A model generated the notes under the pieces. That model did no database searches and had not been told where the DNA came from. It saw nothing but the letters and a program-made list of their open reading frames with translations. From Isoetes taiwanensis (taxonomy: Eukaryota > Streptophyta > Lycopodiopsida > Isoetales > Isoetaceae), in assembly GCA_021234155.1 (NCBI GenBank), contig JAJEKV010000113.1, positions 1,364,001 to 1,428,000 of the forward strand: a stretch of DNA of 64,000 nucleotides. The letters are read 5' to 3'. The position numbers were made by a program, and so were the translations under genes. This document shows, in pieces, positions 12,381 to 32,499 of the stretch. Every line of letters starts with the position of its first letter. Position 1 is the stretch's first letter.

Positions 12381-12622
12381 TTTACCTTTGTATTGAATTA
12401 ACCAAACTTTTACACTGAGTTCATTTTCAGCCTGGGAATATGCATTTTGTGTTGAAATTGAACGACATTCAAAAATACGATGCAAATCACCCATAAAGTA
12501 GAAAATTGCATATTATTTTATACCATCATGGACAACTACGAAATTTATAGAGTAAAATAAGAAGCCTTTTTTCAATAAATAACGGCAAGCAAGTGGCTAC
12601 AAAACTTAGATTTCGTAGTTCA

Positions 12623-12641
12623 GATTGCGCCTGACGCGATT
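12623..12641. repeat. Copy-1 palindrome, distal 3' site
   Basis: ATTGCGCCTGACGCGATTT, the last of the copy-1 palindrome family in the downstream direction of the minus-strand multidomain gene. It lies beyond its stop codon. Confidence 0.75.
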
Positions 12642-12687
12642 TTGTTGGCATAAATATAGCATGATCAAACAACATAAATGCCAAAAA

Positions 12688-12860
12688 CTATTCCGATTCA
12701 TCATCAACAGGCGCTCCTGAGATCCTTTTGATCATGAACAAACCATGATCTAGATTCCATAGCAGATGGATCGCAACATCGAAGGGATCAGGATAGAAGC
12801 AGACGTGATTCATAGCAACGACAGTCAGCCAGTCTTCAAGTTCTATGCCTCGCTGGAGGT
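12688..12860 (-). CDS. Short downstream exon-like ORF of copy 1
   Basis: An open frame preceded by a plausible acceptor (ACCTCCAG) reads RGIELEDWLTVVAMNHVC, continues with FYPDPFDVAIHLLWNLDHGL and ends at a stop at 12688. It lies between the end of the multidomain gene and the last copy-1 palindrome, so it may be an extra 3' exon or a separate small gene. Product not recognised. Confidence 0.3.
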
Positions 12861-13144
12861 ACAATGATGCACATCTATTTATACCCATCTAAATTATTGA
12901 TGGTATATACATACAAATTATTGGACGTATAGCAAATCATATACATAATAGAATAATACAATACATATACAGAACCAATAATGCTGCTACAGTTGTATTT
13001 CGTCTCTAATAATCAGAGAAGATCAACACCATAGAACATTGCAAAGTTATTTTACAATAACACAATATATATTCAAAAGCTTTTGTGTAAAATATATTTC
13101 ATATTCAAAATATTTATGCAAAGTATATTTTCGGTATACATATA

Positions 13145-13766
13145 TCAAAATAGTTCCCTTTCTAGAACAATTTTCTCAAGGTCCCTGTCAATTTCCCCCA
13201 TCCAATCAAGTTGTGGATATAGTGTTTGTATCTCTTTGACCGATTTTTCGGAAGCTATTTCTTGCAAGGCACTGATAAAACGAAGTAGAAAGTCATCTGT
13301 GCTAAACATATTAGGATGATAGGATCGTGGATTTAATGACTGTGACTGATTGAAGCAACACTTGAGGGCGTCATCATCAACCATGATCATGCCTTCCTTT
13401 TCCTCAACACCTAGAGCATCCATCATGGTGCGCAAGCATTTCACAAATATTTTTTTACCTGTCAGATCCTTAGGGTTTGTAAATGAAGCACATTTGCTTT
13501 GATCCTAGATGGGCCTTAATCTCTATTTAGCTCAGGCACTACTCTCAAAACTTCATGTATATTTCCATGTTCCATAGATGACCAAATTGCACAACGAAAC
13601 AGACTAAAGGCCTGGTCCAACATCTCTTTCAGATAAGGGCGCAGGTAAACATATTTGGTATGCATTTCAAATGGTTTCTGTGCATATCATGACTTATCAA
13701 ATGTTGCTTTAGGTAACGTTCTGCATAGCACACCATTCAAATCAAAGACCAGTATTTTTGGGGAAG
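13145..13766 (-). CDS. Copy-1 multidomain gene, FCP1/NLI-type HAD phosphatase exon
   Basis: After the acceptor GTTCAG the sequence reads SPKILVFDLNGVLCRT (motif I at about 13726-13750), then YVYLRPYLKEMLDQAFSLF and CAIWSSM (motif II region, 13570-13645). After a frame change come KIFVKCLRTMMDALG, MIMVDDDALKCCFNQ (motif III/IV acidic pair, 13350-13392) and NPRSYHP. This is the FCP1/NIF phosphatase pattern (CTD-phosphatase-like). Motif I is DxN rather than DxD, as in a plant subgroup reading LDLNGLL. A stop about 12 codons after motif I and the frame change show decay. Confidence 0.7.
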
Positions 13767-13981
13767 CTGAACTATGTGTAACGCGTAAACAGATACGTAT
13801 GAGATGAAAGAAATGGAATAAGAAAATGCGCCAGGCGCGATTTATACAAAGAAGCATGTCAACAAATTCTAAAAATATGAAACCAAAGGAAACTCTAAAT
13901 CGCGCCCGGGTGCGATTTCCATATGCGCGTCATTAGTAAAATGCATGAATATCATAAGACAACGAGCTTGGCCACAATACC
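13767..13981 (-). repeat. Copy-1 intron before the HAD exon, two palindromes
   Basis: Palindromes at 13824-13843 (AAATGCGCCAGGCGCGATTT) and 13897-13918 (AAATCGCGCC...GTGCGATTT). The matching intron of the other copy (30345-30456) likewise carries two sites of its own palindrome family. Confidence 0.75.
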
Positions 13982-14407
13982 TTTCTTCTTCATCAATCCT
14001 CGTGGTGTATTCTTCCATTGCTTCTTTATTCTGTGTTGTCTCCGGTCTGCTAGAAGCATCAACCACATCAGTTAAGATCTGTATAGTTTGAACTATGGTT
14101 GATAGTTCATTACTCTTTACGCTAACTTTTTGGTTAGAGCTTTGATTCGACTCTCGATCCCCTGTCATTATCTTCATCCTTATTATTTTCATCCTATTCT
14201 TTATCTTCGATGTTCCGCGGGCATGTCGAGCGTTTTCGGCGGGGATCGGAACCACTATCGCTCTTTGGTGATATCCATATTGATGCTAGCGGTCCGTCTC
14301 ATAGCCTCCCGTTCTTTAGCCAAATCTGCAGGTATTTCAGCCTTAGAGCTAGAAGCTTTGCTTTTTGCACTGCCGATTGGACCCCTAGGTGCTTCCTCTA
14401 GCACTTT
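13982..14407 (-). CDS. Copy-1 multidomain gene, polar linker before the HAD domain
   Basis: Low-complexity Ser/Lys/Glu-rich stretch (SAKSKASSSKAEIPADLAKE, later DENNKDEDNDRGS, then SNQKVSVKSNELSTIVQ) ending near a donor (GAAAG|GTATTG) at about 13982. An acidic linker sits at the same place in the other copy. Frames shift at least once. Confidence 0.4.
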
Positions 14408-15356
14408 CTAAAAAAGGAGCTCTAAGAAATGCTTGGATCGATCATCGAGGACGACGCTTTGGCATTTCCTTGCTAACTTCAAAGCTTCCCTATCGATGTA
14501 ACCTCCGACATAAAGCTCCCAGCAAGTTGCCCCCAATGCGCAAAATGCTTCAACGAGATAATGAGAAAAGCCCATAGAGAACGCGTTCTTGTTTAGCATC
14601 CCCTTAATTGACGTTAGGAGCTGGTTTACTTTCTCATCTTCCTCTTCAAGTTCTCGCTGTTCCACATCTACGACACCCTTCCCCTTATCTTCAATAGTTT
14701 GCTCAAGATAGAAGACGTTTTGCAGGAGGGGTTCATCTAGCTGATAGCACTGCCATGTAAGTTTTTTGCCTTCTGGTTTCTCCTTAAGCCTTTCATATTC
14801 CTTATCATCCATCATGGCTATCATAATGATTAGCACATGAGAGATTTTACTTTACGTGCTAAACTCACTTTGTCCCTATTTTTTCATCTATAAGGATTGC
14901 TTGCAGGTATCACTTTAACGCATTCTAAATCCTTTGCGGCGGATAGAGCATATGCATAGGACATGTCGGAGGGTAAATTGTGACAATTGTATAATGCATT
15001 TCTGTCGTAAAACCACCGCATGTATCATAGAATGTATTACAGTCATGAAGCGACCATCTGATGCCTCGGTTATCAAGCATGAAGAGTGTGATATCATGCG
15101 GTCCTTTACCCACATCTGGAATTGTATTAAAACCAGTGGACACTTGGTAAAAGAATGTGGATTCTTCTTCGGAGTCTACTTCACCAATGCGACTTTTATT
15201 TTCAAGTCGGATGCCACTTTCGTGTGAATCCCAGCCAGGTTTGCAACGTTTTTCAACTTCTGTGCTCTGTTTGACAAAGTCTTTCGACCAAAAAACATAC
15301 TTCTTCAGATCATCATTGGAGACGTCGTATTTTTGCATTAGTCCTAGACCACTCAC
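14408..15356 (-). CDS. Copy-1 multidomain gene, DNA-methyltransferase-like segment
   Basis: Two open stretches (14925-15356 and 14408-14836) in different frames. The first includes KGPHDITLFMLDNRGI and GGFTTEMHYTIV, which fit the central strands of an N4/N6-type DNA methylase fold. The second includes the C-terminal strand-helix unit HYLVEAFCALGATCWELYVG, followed by GYIDREALKLARKCQSVVLD. In active enzymes this position reads roughly LIxxFxxPGDLVLDPFAGSGT and then an LGRxxIGIE strand. Here the DPFxGSGT SAM loop is CWELYVGG, so SAM binding is probably lost. The other copy has the same kind of replacement. The fold call rests on pattern and spacing. Confidence 0.45.
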
Positions 15357-15910
15357 CTGTAAGCCTTTTGTAACTCCGCTCCAACTGCCATCCTGAGCAC
15401 TCGAATATTTTTCAGTTGGTCGCAGGCGTCTTCAAATGATACCTTGTCCTTCGCTGCAGAACTTTTCTTGTAAAGGACTTCTTTTCTGATGCACCTGTCC
15501 AGAACCGAAATCAGTTCTTCATCGTCTAATCCCTGGGACTTCCTCATCTCTGTGACATGGAGATCGAATATTGATGTGTCAACAGGAGGAAATTTGCCTT
15601 GTGAATCAGACAACTTCTTCTCCACGTAGGCATCCCAGAATTCGTTCCATTTTTCTCAGACCTGGTCATAAGCAAAAATTATTTTGCAGGCATCCTTGGG
15701 TATAGTAGGGGCTTCGGAAGGATCTCCATTTCATCTCCTTTTTTTCTCTTCGCCCTGGTGCTCTTACTCTTATCTTGTATTATAGTCTGACAAAGTGTCC
15801 TTTCTAGCAATTTGAATTCAACGCTTTTAGACTGACCCTGTCTGGTTGGCATTGATTTCCCATACTCTATCCATTGGTTATGAGCATGCCGCAATTGCTG
15901 TATATAGGGG
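15353..15910 (-). CDS. Copy-1 multidomain gene, linker exon(s)
   Basis: Begins at a CCCCT acceptor. It reads RHAHNQWIEYGKSMPTRQGQ, then a basic stretch, then, after a frame change near 15660, EKWNEFWDAYVEKKLSD, SIFDLHVTEMRKSQGLDDEE and FEDACDQLKNIRVLRMAVG. The other copy has matching elements in the same order: RQQAESIGL, then KKWTDIWAQWTRGK, KLFDKQFMKRIHGLTDKE and YATILKETALRHW. The segment is predicted helical and charged. It ends at a consensus donor (ACAG|GTGAGT) near 15357. Confidence 0.5.
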
Positions 15911-16299
15911 CTGCGAAAAATAAATCTGTTAGTTCCAAATTAACAACAAATTGCGCCAGATGCGATTTGCGTATTCTAAAAGAGACCGCTTTCTTTGGTT
16001 AACACCGCAGTCAGTTTACGAAAATGCAAATCCGCGATGAAGCGATTTCGAAATAGAAGAAATCGCGCCGGTAGCGATTTCGCGTATTTTGAAAGGAGGC
16101 AGCTTTCACTGGTTGAAGCATTCTCGTTTTTGAATATGCAAATCGCGTCTGGCGCGATTTCAAAATAGAAGAAAATCGTGCCAGGCACGATTTGACTAAC
16201 CAGAATACTCAGTTAAACGTATCGAGTTTCTGAATAGGCAAATCATGCCTGGCACGATTTGCAAATACGAAAACGAAAAGAGAGGGAAGAAAGATTTAC
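15911..16299 (-). repeat. Copy-1 intron 2 with a six-site palindrome array
   Basis: This 389-nt intron contains six ~21-bp palindromes at 15948-15968, 16028-16048, 16060-16080, 16140-16160, 16173-16193 and 16240-16260. The half-site is AAATCGCGCC and its complement; the purest is 16173-16193 (AAATCGTGCC with GGCACGATTT). Each C/G change on one arm is often matched on the other, as in CGTGCC/GGCACG, keeping dyad symmetry. Spacing alternates between short and about 60-80 bp. Confidence 0.85.
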
Positions 16300-17426
16300 C
16301 TTTTGTACAGAAACGTTTTTCCCATGTCGTTAAGAAGTGCACTGATTTCGGCTAGCTCGGTAGGAGTTGTTGAGCCGCTCAAGAGCCTGCAGTTGCTGAC
16401 CGAATACAGCCTATAGAACAACTGATTTCCAGTATTCTGTGCCTTCCACATCAGAACCTTCTGAGCCTCAATTGAGTGCTGGCCATCTATTATCATGAAA
16501 TGTACGTCTTGGTTGTCGATGAAGTCCTCCAGCTTGTTCCACATGAGTACCTTCCTCTCTTCGTATCGTAAGGCATTACATTTGCCGGCATTGGTATCTG
16601 CCCTAGATTTTCGATCATGCTGTTGACTAACTCCAAGGAGTGCTGCTTGTCGTAACTTCTGCTGACATAAATAGCTTTAGTCGACCTGAAAAACCTATCG
16701 GCGTGGGCCGGGATGGGTGAAGCTAAGGCCCGATGTGGATACTTGTCGGCATTTTTTTTTGAGCTTGCTCATCGCCTCCAACTGCCGGCCTTGTCATCAT
16801 CACTTATAAGGCTGCTGCAACTTACGTAGTGTCCACGCCTCTAGAACTTGCATCTTCCTTATCCTTCAATACCGCATATAGACGCGCTCGAGGGGCCTCG
16901 TGCTGATGGCACGTCGTACAGTTGAAAGCCCTTCGCATATTCTTTTAGGTGTCAATGGCTCACCAACTGTCCAACCAAATTTGAACAAGGTGTCGACAGT
17001 GTCGTCTGATCTTAGGACAGTCTCTTTAAAATAACTAGAGGCGCGACCGATTAATCTTTTTTAGGCTCTTCTTATTTTTTTTGCCCCACTTCAACGAACA
17101 CTGAACAATATGAATCGTCCTATTCTTCGCATGTGATAACAATTCCCTGCTTCTTCATTTAATCAGTCTCTTTTACCCTAGACATGAAAATAAGATCTGT
17201 CTTCCCATTAGTCTTAAAGATCTCGACATATCATTCTGACCCCTCTATAAGATCTTCTTCTGGACATGGAGGTTCTACCTGAGCCTTTATTATTCCAGAT
17301 GTATATTCTAACGTCAACACACATGCTGTAGGTCTGTAACGGTAACGTCTTCATCTGTCCTTTGCTTTTTCTGGGCTAAAGATGTTTGACTGAGTTTGAT
17401 TTTCCTTTTGATTGTCCTTTGTGTTC
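16300..17426 (-). CDS. Copy-1 multidomain gene, exon 2 (N-domain and ParB-like domain)
   Basis: Starts after the acceptor CTGCAG and ends at the donor GTAAAT. The first half, with in-frame stops, matches the N-domain of the other copy: EYTSGIIKAQVE, YVEIFKTNGKTDLIF, then VKETD and GIVIT line up with FFVIEGLETE, YVEVSTSGKEKDLFL, then RDKKS and GVVLS. The second half is ParB/Srx-like: IYVSRSYDKQHSLELVNSM (the R..E helix of ParB), then QIPMPANVMPYD, then the hallmark FMIIDGQHSIEAQKVL at 16452-16500. This corresponds to ParB's IDGEHRLxAA block, which binds a nucleotide in bacterial ParB. Position and spacing fit the fold. No HTH DNA-binding domain is visible. A frame change lies between the two ParB halves at about 16545. 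Confidence 0.6.
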
Positions 17427-17949
17427 CTGCAGAATGATAGCATAACGTTAATGTTGAAATGTGAAAATATATGCTAACTTGCAACGTATGCAACAAAAAC
17501 GCGCTTGGCGCGCTTTGAAACTTTGAGAGATTATAATCTTAGTCTAAATTGCGCCAGGGGCATTTTGTCCGAAACAAAAGGGGTTTGTCAGTATAGGATA
17601 CAGAGATAAGAAATTAATATAATTCTTGGAATATATGCAACAAATACACGTTTGGCGCGCTTTAAAACCGACCTTAGAGATTTTAATCTTCATTTGAAAG
17701 CACAACTAACTATAGAAGACTAAAAATAGTGGATCTGAAATGAAGCGAAAACACAACATGAAGAAATATCAAAAATAAAGATATCGTCATAGCATATATT
17801 TGCATACATCTTGGGATATATGAACTGAAGTATTAGAGGACATGTGCTTCTTAGCGGATAATAACTCTAGTATTAAAGAAAAACATCCGATAAACCTAAC
17901 AAAAAGAGGGACGCAGAAACAAAATATATAAGAAAATTTTGATGATTAC
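17427..17949 (-). repeat. Copy-1 intron 1 with three palindromes
   Basis: The intron between leader and N-domain exons holds sites at 17496-17516 (AACGCGCTTGGCGCGCTTT), 17546-17566 (AAATTGCGCCAGG, decayed right half) and 17642-17663 (CACGTTTGGCGCGCTTT). All are variants of the copy-1 motif centred on GCGCCWGGCGC. Confidence 0.7.
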
Positions 17950-18063
17950 CTGAACGGCTAGCTGGATTAGTACTTTCAGCTTGTTCAACAAGATCCTGGG
18001 TTGCTTTGGCATGTCGCCCACCTCTACACTTCGGCCCGGCGGTTTCGGATCCTCGGATGCCAT
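17950..18063 (-). CDS. Copy-1 multidomain gene, exon 1 (leader)
   Basis: ATG at 18063 opens 38 codons rich in Pro, Lys and Arg (MASEDPKPPGRSVEV...), ending at a canonical donor (TTCAG|GTAATC). Exon 1 of the related gene at 26539 is also short, basic and ends at a GT donor, which supports this start. Confidence 0.5.
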
Positions 18064-19130
18064 AGAACCGCAAGTTAGGAAGATATGTTATGAGGCGGAG
18101 TTTTGGTTCAAATTTATATATATGGGTTGATAATCTAAGCCGTCAGATTAGAACCGTCATTTCAAATTCCCGTCATTTTAAAATTATACCACCTTAAGTA
18201 ACCGCCCATCCCGCTCATTTACATTTTTTTAATGTGCTTTTCTTTTTATTGCAATTTCAAGAAAATAATTAATTCTTATTTTCAAAAATGCATATGTGGC
18301 AAGCTACTTCCACCCTAATCTTCCAAGATCACCGAGCCGCTTCTAATAGCATCTTGGCGTCTTCAATCGACCATCTTCCAAGTCTTCAATCGATCATGTC
18401 CGCTGAACTACGGTGAGTGTCATTCCATTACGAATATGTACGGCTTTTTTTTTTTTTCATGCCAATTCTATCATTACGGTTGTTTATCGATTATTGGGAG
18501 AATGTTATCTTTTAACAGCAAACTTGAAGCGCCGAGTAGGATTATGTAAAGTCGAAGATCTGAATCCAAGTTCTATGTGCCATGGTGTTCCTCTTGGAAA
18601 TAGTTTTACGTAAGATTTCGATTATAAATTGCAATTATGAGGATGAGGCTCTTCGAAGACATCCCGTTAAGCGTCTGATTGGCTAAAAGCGTGGGCACAA
18701 TTGTAGCATGGCCAAAAGCGTCCGAAAAAGGTGTGTGTATAATTACGTTGACTCTTGAAACATAATCTAAATATATCATAACATGCGTCATGGTATGAAT
18801 ATTGAACATTCTTTTATGCTCTTTAGCTTGATATTATCAACCCGAGGAAAACCACCGTTAATTAAAATGTGTAGTTTCTTGAGGTTGGTCGGGGCCGACT
18901 AGAGGGCATCAAAGGATTTCAACGTTCGACATTGCATATAAAAGAAAACATAATAAAAGTCTTGTGAGATAAAAGTCTGCAGTACAAAATTGCGCCAGGC
19001 GCGAGATTATATTAATATTCACAAAATAAAATGTAGATTTTTTTTTTGTGTGTCAAAATCGCCGGTATAAGTTTTTCAAACTAACATAGGAGGGACGTAC
19101 ATATCTAACACAATAAGGCTGTACATATCT
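18064..19130. other. Copy-1 upstream region with one palindrome
   Basis: No recognisable coding sequence. It includes a copy-1 palindrome at 18987-19007 (ATTGCGCCAGGCGCGAGATT) and AT-rich tracts. It presumably contains the promoter of the gene starting at 18063. Confidence 0.4.
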
Positions 19131-19502
19131 CTACAAAATGTCACAAAGGCCCACTTGATCAGCAAGATAACGAGTCACGTGGCCACTGTACCACTTTGAT
19201 ATGACACCGTCATCCCATTCATTGGGAATGTTGAGTCCCCATATCAGAGTATCCCGTCGATCTCTGGCCTTCCTAATCATATCCTCATATTTATTTGTTG
19301 GCATGAGATACACTAAGAGCCTGAAGAGTCGGATAAACCCCGTGATGCGATGGTAGCATTCCCATGGCCTTACATAAAGATTGTCGAATGGCTTATCCAT
19401 CTCTTTTTGTAGGTTTTGAACAGCACAATTAAGAAGTAACTTGTACATGGTCCAGCGTTGATTGTCGTCCAAAGGAAGTGTACTTGAATGAGAATAAGCC
19501 AT
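19131..19502 (-). CDS. Unrecognised 124-codon ORF within copy 1
   Basis: ATG at 19502 (MAYSHSSTLPLDDNQRW) to a stop at 19131. The frame is clean, with a Trp/Tyr/Arg-rich composition (RPWECYHRITGFIRLFRLLV, NKYEDMIRKARDRRDTLIWG, KWYSGHVTRYLADQVG). It lies upstream of the multidomain gene in the same orientation and is bracketed by copy-1 palindromes (18987 and 19588-19717), so it appears to belong to the element. A faint resemblance exists to the ORF at 31808-32192 (KYEDMIRKA versus KFEIVHKA, and a W.GH..R.L end). Function unknown. Confidence 0.45.
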   Translation of the reverse strand: MAYSHSSTLPLDDNQRWTMYKLLLNCAVQNLQKEMDKPFDNLYVRPWECYHRITGFIRLFRLLVYLMPTNKYEDMIRKARDRRDTLIWGLNIPNEWDDGVISKWYSGHVTRYLADQVGLCDIL

Positions 19503-19587
19503 GTGAAATGCACTAGAACGAGAGAAATTAACTAATTAGAAAATAATATTCCTCTCGCCAGAAAATAATCTGAAAAGTTTTATGTTC

Positions 19588-19717
19588 AAAATGCGCCAGA
19601 CGCGTTTTCTAAAGGGTGTTTTTTTAAGAGTTCTACTCTATATGCGCCTGGCACATTTTGAATAAATTTGCAGGAAATGAAAAGGGCAAAATTAAAATGC
19701 ACCAAAGCGCGCGATTT
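19588..19717. repeat. Copy-1 palindromes, upstream cluster
   Basis: Three sites at 19588-19608 (AAAATGCGCCAGACGCGTTTT), about 19640-19659 (ATATGCGCCTGGCACATTTT) and 19694-19717 (AATGCACC...GCGCGCGATTT, decayed). They mark the upstream limit of the palindrome zone. Confidence 0.7.
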
Positions 19718-20111
19718 AGATCCATACTAGCATATCATAGTATAAAAAAAAGCATATGATACATAGATCTACTTAAGGGCAGAGAGCATTACTTACCAGA
19801 TTTTATATGACATAAAATAAGATATATGAGGAATTGATGACATGCATAGCCTTATGGTGCCTTAGATGTAATAGAAATAAAATGTCATCATAAACAAAGA
19901 TGCATACATATAGATAGATAGTATCGAAGAAGTTATTATAGAAGTTATCAAAGAACTCCCTCTCACAATTTTTTTTATAAAGTATGCTATTCTTTATTGA
20001 TTAAAAAAAGTATGCTTTCATTTAAGGACATGTTGGGGAGATGTTTTTTGGATATACTAACTTATTCTATGTTTGTATGTATTAAAGGTCAATGGCATGT
20101 AACATGCTAAA

Positions 20112-20262
20112 AAAATGCCCCCAATGATGATGACCAAGGCAAGGAAAAATCCCCAAATGATGAAGATGATGCCCAAGGAAAGGAAAAGACTCTAAATGAT
20201 GTTGATGATGGCAATTGAAAGGAAAAGACCCCAAATGAAAAGGATGATGCCAAAGGAAAGGA
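20112..20262 (+). repeat. ~48-bp coding tandem repeat (acidic)
   Basis: Three to four units of a 48-51 bp repeat, each encoding roughly PNDEDDAQGKEKT. The third unit contains a stop. It forms the acidic N-terminus of the adjacent DUF7869-type gene. Confidence 0.75.
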
Positions 20263-23861: not shown

Positions 23862-24467
23862 TTATCTACCCTCATACAATGATATAGCATGGAGGTTGCT
23901 CATGGCTTTGTCCATCTCCCTTTTTGGGATCTTGTGTGTGTTGTCCTTTGCAATGTGAGAACTTGGATATGACCATACCACACACTCCACCAATTCCCTC
24001 CTTTGAGGATCAGCATGATTTGCCCTCCACTTCTTCTCCCGGCAGTCGGTGTATTGCTCCTTCAAGTTGCCCTTCTTGTGTCTTCCAATGGGCTCCCAAT
24101 ATTGAATTTGGAATCGAGGGATTTGAACTCCTCTCCATCAGCCATAGTGGTGGTTACATCAGAGAGTGCCACCCCTAACCATATTGGACAATCCTCATCA
24201 TCAGGCCTTACTAGCACAAAGTATCCTTCCTTGATGTCCTCAAAGGGATCCCACTCAGGAAGATCAAACCACTTCGGCTTTGAGGCCTTACTTCCCACAA
24301 ACCACTTGGAACCTTTGTTAGGACCCAAGTGAACATTCTTAGACGTGCTTGCTTCTTGAGAACCCTCCCATCTGGTAGGGAGTCCATGTGATTTTTCTTA
24401 AGAGTGGAGGTGTGCTTTCTATTTCGAACATCATCCCAGTGTGTTATATAATCCTTGATGCCCTTCA

Positions 24468-24953
24468 CTAGTTGGCTAGAGTCTTTAACAGTCTTGAAGG
24501 GAGGTAGTGGTTTTGGCTGCCCTTTAGGAATGAGAACTTCACAGCAGCACCACGTTGCCACAACTCTGGTCTCCACTTATATTGCATGATTGGTATTCCA
24601 TCCCTAAACCAAACCTTGAATTGAAGTGGCTTTGTGTGTCCTGTCAACTGATCCTTACCATATAGCAAGTATCCCTCGACAAATGATTTCCAATCTGCAA
24701 CCTCATCCATCAAGAAAGCCATTGGGTTGGGGTCAATGCAACTCTCAAACACATCCATTAGTTCAGGGAGACTAGTCACGTTTTCTCCCTTGAGCTTGGT
24801 GGAGAAAGTTCCAAAGAATGCATCTATATCATCATGCATATGCCCAACTATCATGAATCCCACTTTCACAACTTTGAATACTCCCACTGCTGTCAAGTAT
24901 GACATTGCCCCAAACATCCATCTATTCTTGTTTTCTTTCCAACAGTTGTCCAA
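24468..24953 (-). CDS. DUF7869-type protein, core fragment of copy 2
   Basis: 162-codon open frame holding the GHMHDDIDAFF motif (HTHEDVDALF in copy 1) and the EVADWKSFVEGYL..LQFKVWFRDGIPIMQ region, nearly collinear with 21.7-22.0 kb on the plus strand. The conserved His and acidic residues make this the part most likely to be catalytic if the protein is a transposase. That role is inference. Confidence 0.6.
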   Translation of the reverse strand: MDNCWKENKNRWMFGAMSYLTAVGVFKVVKVGFMIVGHMHDDIDAFFGTFSTKLKGENVTSLPELMDVFESCIDPNPMAFLMDEVADWKSFVEGYLLYGKDQLTGHTKPLQFKVWFRDGIPIMQYKWRPELWQRGAAVKFSFLKGSQNHYLPSRLLKTLAN

Positions 24954-25079
24954 TTGAACACATAGCTCCTCTGGTAGTTGTTTCTCAAGTAAGGGGAAAT
25001 CATCCCAGTCCTCCTTGATTCACTGGACACCTTGGATGTGAGCTTTTTTATCTGCCTTTGGTAACAAAGCGGTTGATGA

Positions 25080-25536
25080 TGTTGAATCGCTGGAGCATGT
25101 GTAATGGGCACACATGAAGAATGACTCAGTGGAAGAGTACCGAAAGCCCATCAAAGGGCCGGTAGCTCAGTGGTAAAGTACTTGGCTTGCAAGCAAGAGG
25201 TCCTGGGTTCGATCCCTAGCCTGTCTACCCAATCATAGAAATCTCATTTCTCAACATGGTATCAGAGCCATGGTCCCAAGTAGAGGGTGCTTAACTGCAC
25301 CGGGATAATCCCCAGTGGTGTAGGGGGTTAGAATGAGCAAAGCTTGGCGCTGGAAAGCCCAACTCCCGCAAGGGTGGAGTTGCCCAGGAGGGAAGCATGT
25401 GGATTGTGGTGAAGGCCGGAATGGATTGGTGTGCCCATTAAGGGGAATGTTGGAATTTGGAGCATGTGTAATGGGCACACATGAAGAATGACTCAGTGGA
25501 AGAGTACCGAAAGCCCATCAAAGGGCCGGTAGCTCA
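25080..25536 (+). mobile_element. TRIM-like small LTR element
   Basis: A 457-bp non-coding LTR element. The 5' LTR is 25080-25256 (177 bp, TGTTG...CAACA, the expected inverted TG/CA ends). The PBS starts immediately at 25257 (TGGTATCAGAGCCATGG), complementary to the 3' end of initiator tRNA-Met, the usual plant Copia/TRIM primer. The internal region is about 190 bp without ORF. The PPT is ATTAAGGGGAA (25437-25447), directly followed by the 3' LTR (25448-25536), of which only 89 bp remain. The two LTRs are nearly identical over about 90 bp apart from the first 20 bp. It lies inside the copy-2 DUF7869-type gene. Target-site duplications are not visible because the 3' LTR is truncated. Confidence 0.75.
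25156..25229 (+). other. tRNA-Ala(TGC)-like sequence inside the 5' LTR
   Basis: GGGCCGGTAGCTCAGTGG and the following bases fit a tRNA. Acceptor GGGCCGG faces CCTGTCT (six of seven pairs, two G-U). The anticodon arm is CTTGG-CTTGCAA-GCAAG with anticodon TGC. The T arm is CTGGG-TTCGATC-CCTAG. Box A (TAGCTCAGTGG) and box B (GGTTCGATCC) are intact, so a pol III promoter is plausible. The D-stem is weak, with changes that look like C-to-T decay. It lies within the LTR, so it is probably an element part rather than a functional tRNA gene. Confidence 0.6.
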
Positions 25537-26070
25537 CATGGAAGTTTGGATCATCCCTCCATAGATCAAGCACAAAATGACCATAGGTTCCAGTTCCATG
25601 ACCATGTGTTAAGACACCCGCCGGACTTACTTTCATCCGAAAAGCGTTTTGACAACGCTTTGGGTAAAGGATCTAGCTTTGGCAAGAAAGTCTTGTATTG
25701 GTCCATCTTATCATGAATTAGACACAAAATCTGTCAGGCAAGATCCGAGAAAATGTTCTCCAAGGCCAATACAAACCGCCTACATGATATTTGGTCCCTT
25801 TGGTGATCTGCAAATTGCTCCCTAATTGCCATTCTTTCTTTCTCTATTGCAGTTGATGCAAGTGTATCCTTGAGTTGAATGCAAGTGTTGCACTTTGAGA
25901 ATGAAAAAGGCCTTTCTGAAACTCACCTCTTCACGTAGGAATTCCTTGGGCCATTGTATCACAGATCTCGCAGCCTCACCGAGAGTCTTGGCTTCTTCTG
26001 TTGGCCTCATCAACAATGCATCCGCATCAAATACTTGTATCAAAGCGATTCTCGTGTATCCCTCTTCCAT

Positions 26071-26538
26071 GGCGCTGCAGTGAAGAGTTCCCGTGTGTTA
26101 CAGCTCCTCTCCGCTTGCTACCTTAGCCCCGTGCTCATCGATCAAATCAACTATTTGCAAAAAGACACGCAGTTAGAAATAGACAGAGAGTAAGGCGCTG
26201 TTAGGAGCTTACAGCGTCGTGGCGCCATCCGTGAACTCGCTCAAATCGAAGGGCCTCCAGTCGATGTGCGCCCCAAAGTCGCCAATGCCTGAGTAAAACT
26301 AAGCGCCCGGAAATCTCCACTGCGCTCACTAAGTCCCTGGAAATGAATGAATTTCGAATTGGTGTTTGGGCGGGCTAAAGCTGGCCGTGCTGTACCCTTA
26401 GCCCGCTTTTTTCCCTTGAATGATTGTATGTCCTTAATTTCAAATTTAAGAACACGCCCGACCTTTTTTACGTGTAGTCCTAAAACCTCCAAGGCGTGGA
26501 AGAGGCTCAATTTACAAGGGAGTTTGAGCAGCAAGAGG
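26071..26538. promoter_or_regulatory. Divergent intergenic region of copy 2
   Basis: About 470 bp between the starts of the minus-strand DUF7869-type gene and the plus-strand multidomain gene. GC-richer than its surroundings. No clear TATA box was recognised. It is expected to hold both promoters. Confidence 0.4.
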
Positions 26539-26638
26539 ATGCGGGGGCATACAGATATGACGACTCCATTGAAGAAGCGAGGCGCCGGAGCGGAAGTTGG
26601 TTCAAGCGGCACCAAGAAAAGAAAGACAGTGACTCCAG
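26539..26638 (+). CDS. Copy-2 multidomain gene, exon 1 (basic leader)
   Basis: ATG followed by MRGHTDMTTPLKKRGAGAEV, Gly/Ser and a KKRK cluster (possible nuclear signal), ending TCCAG|GTGAGC. It joins exon 2 in frame (..TVTPA|FTAETLV) across a 62-nt intron (26639-26700) that ends CTTGCAG. Confidence 0.65.
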
Positions 26639-26700
26639 GTGAGCTCTCAGTTTTGTGTTCGGTCAGGATACCTTTACTGATCCATCTTTCTGTCTTGCAG

Positions 26701-27836
26701 CATTCACTGCGGAGACGCTAGTGATCACTAGCAGAACTCCGTTCTTCGTTATCGAGGGATTGGAGACAGAGCTACTTGATACACCAGCAGATTCTTGGTG
26801 GTATGTCGAAGTATCAACAAGTGGGAAGGAGAAAGATCTGTTTCTGTGGCAAAGGGATAAGAAGAGCTCCGGCGACAAGTACAAGAAGGTCGGTGTCGTG
26901 CTCTCCGTCTCTGCCCCAGATTCGAAGCATCTTACATTGTATGTGGAAGACTGCCTGAAGGGTAAGTTCTACCACACGAAGAAGTTATCAGTATCCAATT
27001 ACTCTCACTCTTCAATGAGCAAGTCGAAGGGGACCGACAAAAGGCCGGCGCCTTTAAATTGTCAGAACCTTGGGTGGAAGGATCTGGAAGGGATGAAGGA
27101 GGCCGGAACCCTGACATCCAGGGAGCTTGGAATGGAGATTTCCAGGGTGAGGGAGAAGTTGTTCAACACCGGGAGCTTTACGTCCAGCGTGCTAAAGACT
27201 CTAAAGCACTCGGCAGTTTCCATGGATGTTGTAGTTCATAAAGAAAAAACTCCGGACAAGACTGCAGATGAAGCAGAGAGTACACGGGAGGATTCAGATG
27301 CTGAAGAAGAGGAAGATATGGTCGACTCCCAATTCTTGGATCCAGATGAGCAGATTAGGAAATCACAGAGAGGGGCCCAGAAGATGGAGAGGCTGACTCA
27401 GTACTATCCATTAGGGATATCACACAAGCTGCTGGACATCATACGCCTCAAGGTTTGTACAGGAGATGCCGTCTTGTTCAACCACGGGGAATTTAATCCA
27501 GCACACATGTTGGAGATTCTCGAACTTGATGGTGCGACATCTTGTTGCAGATCCAATGCCTCAGGGATGTCATACCATTCAAAGAGATCGACGGTGAGTT
27601 GTTCACCGAAGTCCGAGGAAGACCCGAAGGAAAAGACGCCGGGTTTTGGGTTGTATGCCAACATTCAGGTGAGGGCGCGGCAGTATTGCGCACGAGGAAA
27701 AGGAAGTGCCGCAAAGGATCAAGGACAGATATTCCAAACGAGAGTGCAGAGTTCTTTCAGCGGACACGCCACCAACGGAGCCGCCCAAGATTAGCCACTG
27801 CCAGAACACAATAGCAGCAAGTGCCAGCTACATAAG
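26701..27836 (+). CDS. Copy-2 multidomain gene, exon 2 (N-domain and ParB-like domain)
   Basis: About 830 nt in one frame encode the N-domain (ITSRTPFFVIEGLETELLDT, WWYVEVSTSGKEKDLFLWQR, VGVVLSVSAPDSKHLTLYVE), a hydrophilic part with an acidic run (DAEEEEDMVDSQFLD) and GDAVLFNHGEFNPAHMLEIL, the first ParB helix. After a frame change near 27535 comes IQCLRDVIPFKEIDGELFTE, then GFWVVCQHSGEGAAVLR (27640-27690). This is the ParB 'DGQHS' block with DG replaced by C. After a second change, RYSKRECRVLSADTPPTEPP matches copy 1's RLYSVSNCRLLSGSTTPTEL. The exon ends ATAAG|GTAAAT as in copy 1. Confidence 0.6.
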
Positions 27837-28730
27837 GTAAATTACTATCTCTCTTATGGGGGTTTGAAAGTCGACTTCGCGAGAAAACCCCTTCCGGATT
27901 TCGAAGTCTCTCGATGTTTTCGGCTTCGCGAAGTCGAAAGCCGAGGAGGAAATCGGCAAATGTCGGAGGATCGCGGGGAGACTTTCGACTTTCGCGAAAC
28001 CCCGCAGAAGTAAAGAAAATTAAATATTGAAGGGGCTTTCTGTTACGGGCCGAAAGCCCCCAATCTTTTGTGCTCCTCTTACTTTCGCCGACTTCGCGAG
28101 CCGGGAGATACCCTAGGCAAAAATGAGAACATTAGAGATTAAGGGTTGACGAAGTGAAAGCATCGAAGCCTTCCCATCCTTTCTTCCCACGCACTATCCG
28201 GGCAATGTCGCTTAGTTTATTTCCTAAGTTGCATCGGAAGAGCGGGGCAATATGGATTTGGGAATAGCGGTGCTTTCCTCTGGCATTCACTCTCTCCTTC
28301 TATGTTCTCTCCTCTCGTGGGTATTCTTGACTTCGCGATCGAGAAAGTCCCTTGAATCTTCCCCTTTTCACTGTGGTCCTCTGGGACTTTTTCCGACTCA
28401 TGAGTCAAAGAAACTCCAGGGTAATAGAGAAAACATTAGAAATTAATGGTTGAAGAGTGAAAGCATCGAGTCTTCCCAATCTTTCTTTCCGCCTCTTCGG
28501 CAATGTCGCTTAGTTTATATCCTAAGTTGCATCGCTCAAGAGGCGTGAAAGCAAAGATTTGGGAATGCTGATGCTTTTGCTCTCGCCTTGACTCTCCTAT
28601 GTTTTCTCCTCTCAGGGTGGTATTCTGTTCGCATGAGTCGAGAAACCCCTTGCACCCTCCTGCTTATTGTTTCCTTCGGGTGTTAGGAGATACTTTCATG
28701 CTCTGACATTGTGACATTTAATGAATGCAG
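27837..28730 (+). repeat. Copy-2 intron 2 with seven palindromes
   Basis: Donor GTAAAT and acceptor GAATGCAG. Sites occur at about 27866-27888, 27917-27940, 27981-28001, 28080-28104, 28324-28347, 28387-28414 and 28625-28646. They are variants of CTTTCTCGACTCG and its complement, some centred on TTCGCGAA and some on CATG. The intron also holds a ~230-bp internal duplication: the CATCGA..CTTCCCA..CTTTCTTCC segment near 28160 recurs near 28460. Confidence 0.8.
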
Positions 28731-29517
28731 CCCGTGATCCCGAATCGAGAGATCATACACGCTAGGCAACAAGCTGAAAGCATTGGGTTGTCCTCACCGG
28801 CCCTAAAGGAAACAGGGCCCCCTCCGATAAGTGGGAAGACCTTTGAGAAACTCTCAGGTATGTTCTTCCGAAGGCCGTGAAGATGATGAGGGAGAGGATG
28901 AAGACGAAGAAGAAGAGAACACCAAGAAAGTGCGGGGAATCTCTATCGACCAATATGACCTCATTCTTAGCACCGAAAGGCCCGAAAAAATGGACTGATA
29001 TATGGGCTCAATGGACAAGAGGCAAGTGAAGGACAAGAATGGAGAATTGCCGTGGTAGGTCGGACCCAAAGTTGTTCGACAAGCAATTCATGAAAAGGAT
29101 ACATGGCCTAACGGACAAGGAAACGCTTTGATCTACAGGCGTAATCCCGGATGGAACAATCTCGCTAAGGAAAAGTAGAAGTTCAAAAATGCAGGACTAA
29201 ACGGATTATGCCACAATCCTTAAAGAGACGGCGCTGCGGCATTGGAAGAAGGCATCACAGAGTTCTCCGCAATCTTGCCTCCAATGCACCATGATTTTGA
29301 TTATTATAAGGAGAAGGTCAGCGCTTGATGAGGAAGACATGAAGGAGTTGAACCGCCTATGTCAACCCTACATCAACACCAAGCTAAAAGCGTAACGCCA
29401 AAACCCTCCCCTTTCGAACGTGCTATGGCAATTCAAGAGGAAGCTTGATTCGGGTGGTCCCATTTAAGATCGATGATAGCTCCCCTCCATTCCCGGTAAC
29501 CTTGGGACACAAGGGGT
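28731..29517 (+). CDS. Copy-2 multidomain gene, linker exon (decayed)
   Basis: Starts CCCGTGATCC and reads REIIHARQQAESIGLSSPAL, then an acidic run near 28890, then KKWTDIWAQWTRGK, KLFDKQFMKRIHGLTDKE, TDYATILKETALRHWKKA and EEDMKELNRLCQPYINTKLK in two frames with several stops. Each block has a counterpart in copy 1 (EKWNEFWDAYVEKK, SIFDLHVTEMRKSQGLDDEE and others). Confidence 0.5.
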
Positions 29518-30344
29518 TTGGTGGTCAGAACCGTGCACTGGGTGGCCCGGGGCACTATTTGCCATGAATATGATCAAGACCCCACCCTATTTTATGAAAA
29601 GGCTGACATTGAGCAGTGGTACAAGACGTATCTCGACATGACCGAGCTGGATACTTTCAGTTTCCTTATCTTTTGCATGCCGGGCAATCAGACAACTGTT
29701 GTGTCACAATGGGCAGCTGATATTAACTTCACCAACAAGATCTTGTATTCCATATACGAACTGGAACATGAGTGTAGACTTGGACTGCTAAAGGCACCAA
29801 GTTTTGCCAATGTAGTTTTGGTTTTGGTTTCAAGATCGGCTGCAGACCTGGACAAGTGGTGGTCGAGCGAACACCACTATCTCGACAAGTTCATGATTTC
29901 TCAAGAGCAGATGGAACCCTGGAAGGGTGGCACATTTATGGAGGATGTGCCATTGATGGACAAAGTCAGCACTGATGGTGCGACAGGTCCAATACATAGA
30001 ATTCCTATCCGGCCAAGAGTTATCAAGTACTTCATAACCAGCTTGGTCGAGGAAGATCATATTGTATGCGAGTGGTACATGAATGGCCTGTTCTCTCAGG
30101 GGGCTATACTGTATGGAATGAAACCAATATCCGTGGTTGGAAATAAGGACATGGTTGAAATCATTCGGTCATACCTGGACCTGCTTCATGAGCATTTCAA
30201 AGGGAGGAAGAAAAATGGAAGCAGTAAGGACGATGATGACGAAGACAAACCTGACAGCCAGGGAGAGAAAGATGACGGAGACGAGAATGTCCAAGGTTTA
30301 GACGAGGATGTTGCCGAACATATTCTCGAGAACCTGAGATTGAG
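29518..30344 (+). CDS. Copy-2 multidomain gene, DNA-methyltransferase-like domain
   Basis: 276 codons without a stop. TFSFLIFCMPGNQTTVVSQW, then INFTNKILYSIYELEH and FANVVLVLVSR, follow the usual central part of N4/N6 DNA methylases (G.LFVFC....W....GF..RNEIVW....E.ILVFSK). RPRVIKYFITSLVEEDHIVC follows the RPxxLIxxLIxxFxxPGDxVxD strand-helix. Where active enzymes have DPFxGSGT, this protein has EWYMNGLFSQGA, and no DPPY-type motif IV was found. It is therefore probably a methylase fold that no longer methylates. It ends in an acidic tail (DDDDEDKPDSQGEKDDGDEN) and a donor TTGAG|GTGAGT. Confidence 0.5.
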
Positions 30345-30456
30345 GTGAGTTCACTTTGCTCTCGGAAGTCGAGAAACGCTCCGAGTCTTTAACTTTTTCT
30401 TTTTCCGACTCGCGAGCGAGAAAACGTTTCCTATCTGACGTTTTTCATCATTCCAG
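30345..30456 (+). repeat. Copy-2 intron before the HAD exon, two palindromes
   Basis: A 112-nt intron with canonical GTGAGT and TTCCAG ends. It carries palindromes at 30355-30378 and 30399-30426 (TTTTTCCGACTCGCGAGCGA core). Same position and site number as the copy-1 intron at 13767-13981. Confidence 0.75.
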
Positions 30457-31312
30457 GGACATCGATTGCAACGAATCGGGATCATTGTCAATATCACAAG
30501 GATCTACTGGCAGTTCACATCACGAGGATACTGGATCCAAGAAAGGCAGTCAAGAGCAAGACAGTGCGGGCAGCAAGAAAGGACCCGAAAAAATAATGAT
30601 CCCGCATATGGATCCCGATCAAGAGGAAATCTGGTCAGAGCCAAACTTCAATTGGGATCCATCGGGCCCCACCAAGCTTGTAATATTTGACGTCAATGGA
30701 GTATTAGTTGCAGTATACCATGATAAAGACGTCCCTGAGCTTAACACCTCGCAGATACCGACAAAAGTGGGGTCTAAAATCGTGTATCCCCGGCCTAAAG
30801 CAAAGGAGATTATTGATTGGTGCCCAGGCGGGGATTCTCGGGTGGCCATATGGTCTTGTATGGCAAAGAAAAAATATTGTCAATGTCCTCGGTGTTCTCG
30901 GCCTTCCAGTTTTTGAAGTTCAAGTTTGTTTGGGAAACGAAAAGGGTCGAAAGCATGTGTGAGACCTCGATCCCACCATCACAAAGGGGAAGCCTATTAT
31001 GGTGAAAAGTGGGGACAGGTTTATGAACAATTCGGACTTTAACAAACACAACACGCTGGATCATAGACGACTCGCTACAAGTGCTATCATAACTTCGTAA
31101 AATACAATCATTGACAAGACTTATCGCCCTAAGAGTATGAAACGGATAGGTAGTTGTCTATGAATCTCGCCCCTCAGGCCGGAATCCCTGCGCTTGCCAT
31201 TCTTGTGGCCTATGTGATTAGGAACTATCCGAACCTCAAGCGAGTCGATCCAGAGACAGTAGCGATCATGAAAGCTATGGATGACAAATATTATGGTGAT
31301 CAAGAAGAGTGA
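30457..31312 (+). CDS. Copy-2 multidomain gene, FCP1/NLI-type HAD phosphatase exon
   Basis: Ser/Lys-rich leader (SISQGSTGSSHHEDTGSKKG), then TKLVIFDVNGVLVAVYHDKD (motif I, about 30674-30720), then YPRPKAKEIIDWC and RVAIWSCMAKKK (motif II area, about 30837-30872). After frame changes come VCLGNEKG, NNSDFNKHNT and WIIDDSL (acidic motif, 31057-31077). The C-terminus, IPALAILVAYVIRNYPNLKR followed by VDPETVAIMKAM, stops at 31310-31312. As in copy 1, motif I is DxN. Order and spacing fit plant FCP1-like phosphatases. Confidence 0.7.
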
Positions 31313-31389
31313 CCGCTTCCGGATAGTCGAGTTGTGTAAATTTTGTAAAGAAACATGAAGAAATGTACTATATTTTGTAATGAATATAC

Positions 31390-31715
31390 TTGTACATTGA
31401 GTTTTCACTGGCTTTCTCGACTCGCAAGTCGAGAAAGGCATGCTTGTCCTATTGATGAAACTATGTGTATGTTTGTTTGTGTGACTGGATGCAGTCATAT
31501 TCTATAATGGTTGTACATTGGTTTTTCGGCCTTTTTCGACTCATGAGTCGAGAAAGGCATTGCTTGTCTCATTGACGAGACCATTTGTATGCTTCCGTGT
31601 GTGATTGGATGCAGCCATATTCTAATGAAAATGGTTGTACTTTGACTTTTTCGGGCCTTTCTCGACTCGCGAGTCGAGAAAGGCACTACTTGCCACGTGA
31701 TTAGATGTAGTTACA
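31390..31715 (+). repeat. ~120-bp tandem repeat, three units each with a palindrome
   Basis: Units start TTGTACATTG at 31390 and 31511, and TTGTACTTTG at 31635. The last is shorter. Each carries one copy-2 palindrome: 31412-31437, 31531-31556 and 31657-31682. The last is a perfect 26-bp dyad (CTTTCTCGACTCG and complement), extending to 30 bp with flanking GC/GC. This lies just downstream of the multidomain gene's stop. Confidence 0.85.
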
Positions 31716-31807
31716 TGAAATGAATGTATTTTGAATTCACCATTCTTTTCTTCGTTTTGACTAATGGCACCGTAATTGTTAATCATAGACTCTCCTTGCT
31801 CCTGTGT

Positions 31808-32192
31808 GGTTCAGCACGATCCCCACCAAAGCCACAGATCCCGCTTAGGCCTCGAGAGACCGCTCCAGCAAAGACAGATCCCGGCTCAAAGGCAGAGATA
31901 CTGTTCGGCACAGATCCGCCACGCTACACTCCCCCCAGGCCTTTGGGATAAGGTTGCTCGTGAGTGCAGACGCTATGCACACACTCGGGATAAAGAAGAG
32001 GGGAAGAAATTTGAGATAGTCCATAAAGCTCAAAGCATCTTGCAAGCATTGCATAACATCCACGGAGGTTGGGGAAGGAGCATATTCGATGAAGAGTCTG
32101 CGGGAGGAGGGTGGAGAAGTCGGTGGACAGGTCACCGTTATTCCGTGAGGCACCTCTTCGGGGTTGCCCCCAAGGCTTTACAGATGGCATGA
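31808..32192 (+). CDS. Downstream exon-like ORF in copy 2
   Basis: After a TTCAG acceptor-like site the frame runs about 128 codons: LPPGLWDKVARECRRYAHTR, then KKFEIVHKAQSILQALHNIH, GGWGRSIFDEES and RWTGHRYSVRHLFGVAPKAL, stopping at 32190-32192. It is bracketed by copy-2 palindromes (31657 and 32403), so it seems to belong to the element. Product not recognised. A faint similarity to the ORF at 19131-19502 is noted there. Confidence 0.35.
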
Positions 32193-32402
32193 AGAAGCCC
32201 CGCAAGTTAATCCTCTAAGGTGGACCACCGCATTACCCACACGACGATGTAATCAGTAGTGACAAGCAAGACCGCCATGGTCTCTGCGTCCCATGTAAAA
32301 TACATTGTACCTATTCAATTTATTAATAAAAATTCTTTTTTTCAACTAGAACTTTGGTTTCAATCAGAATGAATTTCCTTTGTTTGAGTTCTATTGTTCT
32401 TG

Positions 32403-32426
32403 TTCTCGACTCGCTATCCGAGAAAA
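32403..32426. repeat. Copy-2 palindrome, distal 3' site
   Basis: TTCTCGACTCGC...CCGAGAAAA, the last copy-2 site. It lies 35-90 bp before LINE-derived sequence begins. Confidence 0.65.
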
Positions 32427-32499
32427 TCGGGAGTAAGCTCGACCCACGCTTAGGAGACAAATATTTGAATTAAGGAGCCAAGCTCTCCTTTAAGATCAA

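What the first reader, a model, noticed from the sequence alone, without database searches (positions are those of the whole stretch)
12623..32426. Copy-specific palindromes fill the introns of both multidomain genes
Copy 1 has about 16 sites of a ~21-bp palindrome (half-site AAATCGCGCC) between 12623 and 19717. Copy 2 has about 13 sites of a different palindrome (half-site CTTTCTCGACTCG) between 27866 and 32426. None falls in recognised coding sequence, and none of either family was seen elsewhere in the window. Many sites keep dyad symmetry despite changes on both arms, which suggests selection or copying rather than drift. Bacterial ParB binds palindromic parS sites, so a ParB-like protein reading its own intronic palindromes is an attractive hypothesis. 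Homogenised intron repeats are an alternative.
Basis: partly seen in the sequence, partly recalled or inferred. Interest (0 to 1): 0.92.

Follow-up and report, generated by a model that had tools for sequence, protein, structure and literature searches.

The report
Palindrome-studded two-gene DNA transposon pair
The palindromes are real, but the 'genes' that carry them belong to two neighbouring jumping elements found in many copies across this large, probably plant, genome, and each element family seems to carry its own short docking sequence, most likely for a protein that the element itself encodes.

Summary
Both palindrome families exist and exceed chance, but they are not copy-specific: A (AAATCGCGCCNGGCGCGATTT) has 5,585 places genome-wide and B (CTTTCTCGACTCGCGAGTCGAGAAAG) 7,885 at up to 3 mismatches; reversed controls give 5 and 0. 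The 'multidomain genes' are parts of DNA transposons: A at 12321-23663, B from 23666. Each family pairs the multidomain gene (C-terminal NIF/FCP1-like HAD domain) with a divergent DUF7869 gene, the putative transposase: among listed hits, 20 A and 34 B pairs lie within 25 kb, all divergent, about 0.5 expected each; A-B cross-pairs occur only at the window and its duplicate. Five elements with both ends have inverted repeats and 4-bp duplications; 45 of 45 sites lie inside, none in 16.4 kb of flank. Gene-less elements keep the palindromes. Arm covariation is mostly at chance, and ParB homology was not found. Best reading: family-specific binding sites of an element-encoded protein in non-coding DNA, working like VANC sites of Arabidopsis VANDAL transposons. 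Binding and function are inferred. Transposon identity about 95%; mechanism about 50%.

The parts
12321..23663 (.). Transposon A, whole element (11.3 kb)
   Evidence: Left TIR at 12321 identical over 32 bp to both ends of element A1046; right end: outer 13 bp at 23651-23663 and inner TIR at about 22985-23012, separated by about 640 bp. The 4-bp duplication could not be checked: element B abuts.
12321..12352 (+). Left terminal inverted repeat of A
   Evidence: Exact match to AACCATCATTCAATTAAATTGGGATTATGTCT; its first 31 bp at 1,846 + 1,874 places genome-wide at up to 3 mismatches, reversed control 0
13148..17370 (-). Multidomain gene of A (broken): NIF/FCP1-like HAD part 13148-13842, middle exon 14294-15912, exon with IDGQHS motif 16299-17370
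   Evidence: tblastn of frames from another copy; NIF PF03031 at 2.3e-17 on the homologous frame of L022
19131..19535 (-). Probable 5' exon of the A multidomain gene
   Evidence: ORF of 134 aa resembling an ORF of another copy, L022 7910-8194 (by eye)
20117..22711 (+). DUF7869 gene of A (putative transposase), divergent from the multidomain gene
   Evidence: tblastn 68-92% to the A1046 copy in pieces; DUF7869 on the A1046 frame at 1.2e-06; 20 of 20 nearby A pairs divergent
12622..12642 (.). A palindrome, 18/20, 3' of the HAD exon
13823..13843 (.). A palindrome, 19/20, intron
13897..13918 (.). A palindrome with 2-bp centre, intron
15948..16260 (.). Five A palindromes (15948, 16060, 16140, 16173, 16240), intron array
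17496..17663 (.). Three A palindromes (17496, 17546, 17643), intron
18987..19007 (.). A palindrome, 18/20
19588..19608 (.). A palindrome, 17/20, upstream of the 5' ORF, between the two divergent genes
23666..32476 (.). Transposon B, left end at 23666; right end lost (homology to other copies stops at 32426-32476)
   Evidence: Left end AAGTCGCATTTAATTAAAGTGGGTC as in elements B930 and B123; right limit
23666..23690 (+). Left terminal inverted repeat of B
23865..25907 (-). DUF7869 gene of B (putative transposase), remnants 23865-25067 and 25721-25907, interrupted by the 25091-25536 repeat
   Evidence: PF25273 at 1.9e-36; tblastn; 34 of 34 nearby B pairs divergent
26419..31237 (+). Multidomain gene of B (broken): N-terminal and IDGQHS-like part 26419-27837, middle exon 28687-30345, NIF/FCP1-like HAD part 30653-31237
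   Evidence: tblastn; NIF PF03031 at 3e-10 on the homologous frame of L026
28322..28646 (.). Three degenerate B palindromes (28322, 28388, 28621; 17/26), intron
30352..30425 (.). Two degenerate B palindromes (17/26) filling a short intron
   Evidence: the matching sites of L013 score 23 and 24, of L017 23 and 22
31412..31682 (.). Three strong B palindromes (31412 25/26, 31531 23/26, 31657 26/26) 3' of the HAD exon
   Evidence: 13-copy alignment: 3.1% divergence in palindromes, 6.3% in 40-bp flanks
32401..32426 (.). B palindrome 20/26 near the lost right end
   Evidence: in element B930 the last site ends about 150 bp from the right end

Best explanation
SHOWN: the palindromes are repeated sequences inside a group of DNA transposons with terminal inverted repeats and 4-bp target duplications. 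Gene-bearing elements have two divergent genes: a DUF7869 protein, and a multidomain protein ending in a NIF/FCP1-like HAD domain. Two related families, A and B, each have their own palindrome, absent from the other in all loci read. Sites sit between the two genes, in introns and 3' of the multidomain gene, and gene-less derivatives keep them. INFERRED: the palindrome is the binding site of a protein of the same family, most likely the multidomain protein, as a dimer. Many copies spread over non-coding DNA let it recognise its own family only. Its job is most likely to keep those regions transcribed and unsilenced, as VANC proteins do for VANDAL elements; the HAD (CTD-phosphatase-like) domain would be the effector or a contact to RNA polymerase II. 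DUF7869 would be the transposase acting at the ends.
For: Transposon: two gene-bearing and three gene-less elements with both ends, with 4-bp duplications ATAA, ACTT, TAAA, ATTA, CAAA; A TIR at 3,720 places. Among the hit rows used, 20 of 137 A and 34 of 129 B multidomain hits have a DUF7869 hit of their own family within 25 kb (about 0.5 expected in each case), every one divergent. Specificity: 45 of 45 sites (A at least 16 of 20, B at least 19 of 26) inside the five elements, 0 in 16.4 kb of flank; none of 39 loci holds both motifs at these thresholds. Cis-role: gene-less loci share terminal stretches and the palindromes with gene-bearing ones; L009, L011, L012, L014, L018, L020, L038 and L039 have no match to ten protein queries. 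Palindromes diverge about half as much as 40-bp flanks in two of six aligned blocks and less in three more. The B copies L036 and L037 (70 and 73% protein identity) keep 4 and 19 sites, and the A copy L034 (67%) keeps 8. The multidomain protein looks constrained: median dN/dS 0.19 (B middle exon, 6 pairs), 0.41 (A middle, 10 pairs), 0.34 (A HAD, 21 pairs) (several copies were picked for long open frames). VANC likeness: family-specific short motifs in introns, intergenic and terminal non-coding regions, amplified in tandem (passages of PMC5735166; of PMC10398659).
Against: No binding, methylation or expression data. The multidomain protein has no recognisable DNA-binding domain by Pfam or PDB sequence search. 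Conservation of sites is modest: in one of six blocks palindromes are more diverged than flanks (13.5 against 10.8%), and in three blocks they are more diverged than the remaining block positions (11.2 against 4.5, 13.5 against 6.2, 5.9 against 5.6%), which may include exon. A copies L033 and L035 keep 1 and 0 sites in the stretch fetched. Neither gene-bearing element with both ends is shown to be coding-intact: B930 has no match to the N-terminal part of the multidomain protein and the A1046 DUF7869 frame aligns with a gap in the conserved centre. VANC motifs are short and in one orientation; these are 21-26-bp dyads. The HAD motif has Asn for the second Asp in all 24 reads found (motif recalled), so phosphatase activity is doubtful. 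dN/dS of the B HAD part is 0.52 (3 pairs), and of the B IDGQHS part 0.6 (1 pair).
Confidence: 0.5

Rival explanations
1. TNPA-like: the palindromes are accessory sites bound by the DUF7869 or the multidomain protein to bring the ends together for excision, as subterminal repeats do in CACTA elements.
For: Retention in gene-less elements, which must be moved in trans; last site about 150-650 bp from the right end in all five elements with both ends.
Against: Strong asymmetry: the first site is 871-5,143 bp from the left end in the same five; many sites are in introns or between the genes, far from both ends.
Confidence: 0.22
2. Sites for a host transcription factor or chromatin protein, used as promoter or enhancer elements.
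For: Site clusters between the two divergent genes in A1046 and upstream of the multidomain gene in L025, L026 and L028; long CpG-rich dyads are plausible targets.
Against: Two related families carry two unlike motifs with no sharing in 39 loci, and the motif persists in several copies of 67-73% protein identity; a host factor would more easily be shared.
Confidence: 0.1
3. No function: palindromes spread by tandem duplication and gene conversion and ride along as the element multiplies.
For: Local tandem units (42 bp in L002, 48-49 bp in L011); no arm covariation beyond chance in A. Genome-wide mirrored double change: 5 seen (two of them the window and its duplicate) against 0.9 expected; unmirrored control double: 4 against 2.1; small numbers. 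One block with more divergence in palindromes than in flanks.
Against: The same motif in gene-less loci whose other internal DNA was not matched to the gene-bearing copies (part of the output was cut); lower divergence than flanks in five of six blocks although CpG-rich.
Confidence: 0.18

Closest known systems
VANC anti-silencing system of Arabidopsis VANDAL (MULE) transposons
   Same: Element-encoded non-transposase gene; family-specific motifs, many per element, in introns, intergenic and terminal non-coding DNA; related families have different motifs; tandem amplification (passages of PMC5735166 and PMC10398659).
   Different: The motif is a 21-26-bp palindrome, not a short directional repeat; ends with TIRs and 4-bp duplications and a DUF7869 gene; VANC homology was not tested by name; no methylation data.
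Sola superfamily of DNA transposons
   Different: Homology of DUF7869 to a Sola transposase was not tested; two of the five duplications hold one G/C base; divergent second gene and internal palindromes are not mentioned in the passages seen.
CACTA (En/Spm) TNPA and its subterminal repeats
   Same: Several copies of a family-specific motif read by an element protein (recalled; search listing only).
   Different: No CACTA ends, 4-bp duplication, sites not subterminal at the left end.
Bacterial ParB-parS
   Same: Palindromic site read by a protein of the same replicon (recalled).
   Different: No ParB homology found; dispersed transposon sites, not a partition locus.

Membership tests
Cut-and-paste DNA transposon with TIRs | Terminal inverted repeats on both ends | tested here: met
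   Five elements of two families
Cut-and-paste DNA transposon with TIRs | Fixed-length target site duplication | tested here: met
   4 bp in five of five: ATAA, ACTT, TAAA, ATTA, CAAA
Cut-and-paste DNA transposon with TIRs | DDE/RNase H-fold transposase | tested here: inconclusive
   DUF7869 matched; fold not shown: AlphaFold2 on the window fragment alone gave mean pLDDT 38.8; no PDB sequence match of note (one chain at E 0.53)
Sola superfamily | 4-bp, AT-rich target duplication | tested here: met
   criterion from passages of PMC3627910 and PMC10741241; other superfamilies also make 4-bp duplications
Sola superfamily | Sola-type transposase | not tested
   No Sola transposase sequence or model was compared
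VANC/VANDAL anti-silencing system | Family-specific motif repeated in non-coding DNA of the element | tested here: met
VANC/VANDAL anti-silencing system | MULE-type transposase and MULE-type target duplication (9-11 bp, recalled) | tested here: not met
   4-bp duplications; DUF7869, and no MULE model among the Pfam matches listed. It may work like VANC; it is not filed as one
VANC/VANDAL anti-silencing system | Protein binds the motif and removes DNA methylation | not testable with these tools
   needs EMSA/ChIP and bisulfite data
CACTA (En/Spm) | CACTA termini and 3-bp duplication (recalled) | tested here: not met
   Ends AACC/AAGT, 4-bp duplications
ParB-parS | ParB (ParBc/sulfiredoxin-like) domain | tested here: not met
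   No ParB family in Pfam for any of 4 aligned members at E up to 10; only one unrelated PDB chain at E 0.84. By sequence only; a distant fold match is not excluded

The most novel reading that the evidence does not exclude
A second, independently evolved sequence-specific anti-silencing system in a non-MULE DNA transposon: a protein with a NIF/FCP1-like domain binds long family-specific palindromes spread through the element's introns and bidirectional promoter and protects or reactivates only its own family; palindrome and protein have diverged together between families.
Probability: 0.33. Interest if true: 0.82.

Novelty: new variant of a known kind. Interest (0 to 1): 0.62.

Why it matters
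If the palindromes are read by the element's own protein, this genome offers two natural protein/site pairs with different specificities and thousands of sites, in which the rule linking protein to site could be worked out. It would show that motif-guided self-recognition in non-coding DNA, known from Arabidopsis VANDAL elements, arose in another transposon group. It also explains a gene pair that could be mistaken for host genes, and it links the uncharacterised DUF7869 to a transposon with 4-bp duplications.

Tried and rejected
Copy-specific intron palindromes of host genes: rejected; both motifs are dispersed in thousands and the genes belong to transposons.

Arm covariation as evidence of selection: not supported in A or in the B core. 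Shuffles of distinct sites with random orientation supersede a first version with lexicographic orientation. Genome-wide test at one position: perfect 623, left-only 26, right-only 21, mirrored double 5 (0.9 expected; two of the five are the window and its C1089 duplicate); unmirrored control double 4 (2.1 expected). Too few to decide.

ParB: no sequence support. Structure: AlphaFold2 on the window's own DUF7869 fragment was useless.

Identity of all aligned copies at palindromes (0.920 A, 0.943 B) against flanks (0.882) and other positions (0.893) is biased by choosing near-consensus sites; the block test is preferred, with its contrary results told above. For that reason I round the mechanism from 0.52 to 0.50 and raise 'no function' from 0.16 to 0.18.

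Literature: DUF7869 is in no paper of the held library. Listings (titles and starts of abstracts) (12 of 21 papers; 15 of 37; 12 of 1,140; 15 of 17; 9 of 9; 10 of 41; 10 of 234) show none that names this element; passages only were seen of PMC5735166, PMC10398659, PMC10741241, PMC3627910, PMC12730594 and PMC11071193 (the last two gave nothing used here). Subscription journals are mostly not held, so absence from print is not claimed. Viral relatives of DUF7869: none confirmed among 123 pattern stretches.

Rows dropped: one search used 137 of 150, 129 of 138, 122 of 131 and 138 of 150 printed rows. The rows left out lie on small contigs or are second fragments of rows kept; compared by eye, none lies within 25 kb of a listed partner row. 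All four searches score only the best of 2,531-10,279 candidates, so most copies were not seen. Site thresholds (A 15 or 16 of 20, B 17 or 19 of 26) are given with each count; weaker sites were dropped.
Full report
OBSERVATION. The two palindromes are in the window and exceed chance: 13 A sites (at least 15 of 20) against a simulated mean of 0.7, and 10 B sites (at least 17 of 26) against 0.63; at 19 of 26 there are 4 B sites against 0.05. Half-site searches agree. All 13 A sites lie in 12622-19608; nine of ten B sites in 28322-32426. They avoid the exons found by homology, but several are 5' or 3' of the recognised exons rather than in introns.

GENOME-WIDE. The window lies in a 1.66-Gb assembly (G000; unnamed; a plant by my inference from gene content, not tested). 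At up to 3 mismatches A has 5,585 places and B 7,885, with 5 and 0 for the reversed patterns; 623 A places are perfect. I fetched ten 5-kb stretches around perfect A sites and ten around perfect B sites. Eight of the A loci (L001, L002, L004-L008, L010) and five of the B loci (L013, L015-L017, L019) hold copies of the window's genes; the other seven (L003, L009, L011, L012, L014, L018, L020) hold the palindromes in different surroundings.

WHAT CARRIES THEM. L003 and L009 hold short elements (1.6 and 1.9 kb) bounded by inverted repeats; one end is identical to the sequence at window 12321 and the other carries four changes in 31 bp. L012, L018 and L020 share about 70-195 bp of one end with gene-bearing B copies; L011 and L014 resemble these loci but their ends were not found. 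Gene-bearing elements with both ends followed: A1046 (13.8 kb, perfect 32-bp TIRs, duplication ATAA) and B930 (11.6 kb, duplication ACTT). A gene-less B element of 6.2 kb (B123) has duplication CAAA, and L003 and L009 have TAAA and ATTA. In these five, 45 of 45 sites (17, 14, 4, 3, 7) lie inside and none in 16.4 kb of flank. Loci were chosen because they hold sites or genes, so this speaks to boundaries, not to the whole genome. L003 has one weak HAD match (27.8%), nearly all of it beyond the element's right end.

TWO GENES. The partner gene carries Pfam DUF7869 (1.9e-36 in window B; 2.9e-38 in B930 and 1.2e-06 in A1046). Of the hit rows used, 20 of 137 A and 34 of 129 B multidomain hits have a DUF7869 hit of their own family within 25 kb (about 0.5 expected each), and all 20 and all 34 are divergent; A-B cross-pairs (two each way) occur only at the window and at C1089:12.51-12.52 Mb, a duplicate of the window's pair. 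The lists hold only the best-scoring copies, so missing partners say little. A and B proteins are homologous: 33% (IDGQHS exon), 30% (middle and HAD), 39% (DUF7869), 22-42% over smaller or more variable parts. The multidomain protein ends in a NIF/FCP1-like domain (2.3e-17 and 3e-10); motif I reads D-x-N-G in 23 of the 24 reads found and N-x-N-G in one. Its IDGQHS exon shows no ParB match. Median dN/dS is 0.19-0.41 for the three parts with six or more pairs, 0.30, 0.52 and 0.60 for parts with one to three pairs; single pairs range up to 0.93. B930 lacks a match to the N-terminal part of the multidomain protein and the DUF7869 frame of A1046 has a gap in its conserved centre, so neither is shown to be an intact autonomous copy.

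WINDOW ANATOMY. A occupies 12321-23663: multidomain gene on the minus strand, DUF7869 gene on the plus strand, right terminal repeat split by about 640 bp. B starts at 23666, two bases after A ends: DUF7869 on the minus strand, multidomain gene on the plus strand, right end lost after about 32476. The array that lies 5' of the multidomain gene in L025, L026 and L028, and holds nine of fourteen sites in B930, is missing from window B; that is why the window shows B sites mainly in introns and 3'. That B jumped into the flank of A is a guess from the abutting ends. By stop-to-stop frames alone one A1046 site (6160) falls inside an open frame of 217 aa; exon limits there are unknown.

TESTS OF SITE FUNCTION. 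(a) Conservation: in six aligned blocks (6-13 copies) divergence from the block majority, palindromes / 40-bp flanks / remaining positions, was 3.1/6.3/7.9, 9.3/12.8/12.5, 3.5/6.6/6.2, 11.2/14.2/4.5, 13.5/10.8/6.2 and 5.9/7.5/5.6 per cent: lower than flanks in five, higher in one; higher than the remaining positions in three. (b) Depth: B copies L037 (73% protein identity) and L036 (70%) keep 19 and 4 sites; A copies at 65-67% vary: L034 8, L033 1, L035 0, in the stretches fetched. (c) Covariation: none beyond chance except at B's outermost pair. (d) Position: last site about 150-650 bp from the right end, first site 871-5,143 bp from the left, in the five elements.

INTERPRETATION. Point (b) for most copies, part of (a), and retention in gene-less elements favour a cis-acting role; family specificity favours a reader encoded by the family; the spread over introns and the region between the genes favours a regulatory or anti-silencing role over end-pairing. 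Passages of PMC5735166 describe VANC21 bound in introns, intergenic and terminal non-coding regions at a family-specific motif amplified by tandem repeats, and VANC6 with different motifs; passages of PMC10398659 repeat this. The likeness is close, but binding, methylation and expression are untested here. Superfamily: 4-bp AT-rich duplications fit Sola as described in passages of PMC10741241 and PMC3627910; the transposase comparison was not made, so I do not file it there.

VERDICT. Real feature, reinterpreted: a DNA transposon group with two divergent genes and family-specific internal palindromes. Transposon identity about 95%; a self-encoded reader about 70%; VANC-like action as the main role about 50%.

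Noticed in passing
G000:C1089:12507518-12523266 (compare window 13-32 kb): A duplicate of the A+B pair: all four gene pieces in the same relative order and orientation, 92-100% identical at protein level (93% B gene, 92% A DUF7869, 98% B DUF7869, 100% the 147-aa A piece).
   Followed up: partly
25091-25536: Two identical 79-bp direct repeats, 367 bp from start to start, with a tRNA-like stretch and TGGTATCAGAGCC between (by eye); looks like a small terminal-repeat retroelement inside the B DUF7869 gene.
   Followed up: no
20125-20264: 39-bp tandem repeats at the coding start of the A DUF7869 gene; similar acidic/lysine repeats in the A1046 frame (by eye).
   Followed up: no
5' arrays of L025-L029 and first nine sites of L037, against the 3' block: A variant B palindrome CATTCTC...GAGAATG is common in the 5' array while CTTTCTC...GAGAAAG is the consensus of all three 3' sites: a symmetric change at the outer pair.
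   Followed up: partly
multidomain HAD exons, 24 reads in 24 loci: The second Asp of the DxDx motif is Asn in all 24, suggesting a pseudo-phosphatase or a NIF variant (motif recalled).
   Followed up: partly
39155-43092: Long open frames on the minus strand that look like a LINE-type reverse transcriptase element (by eye).
   Followed up: no
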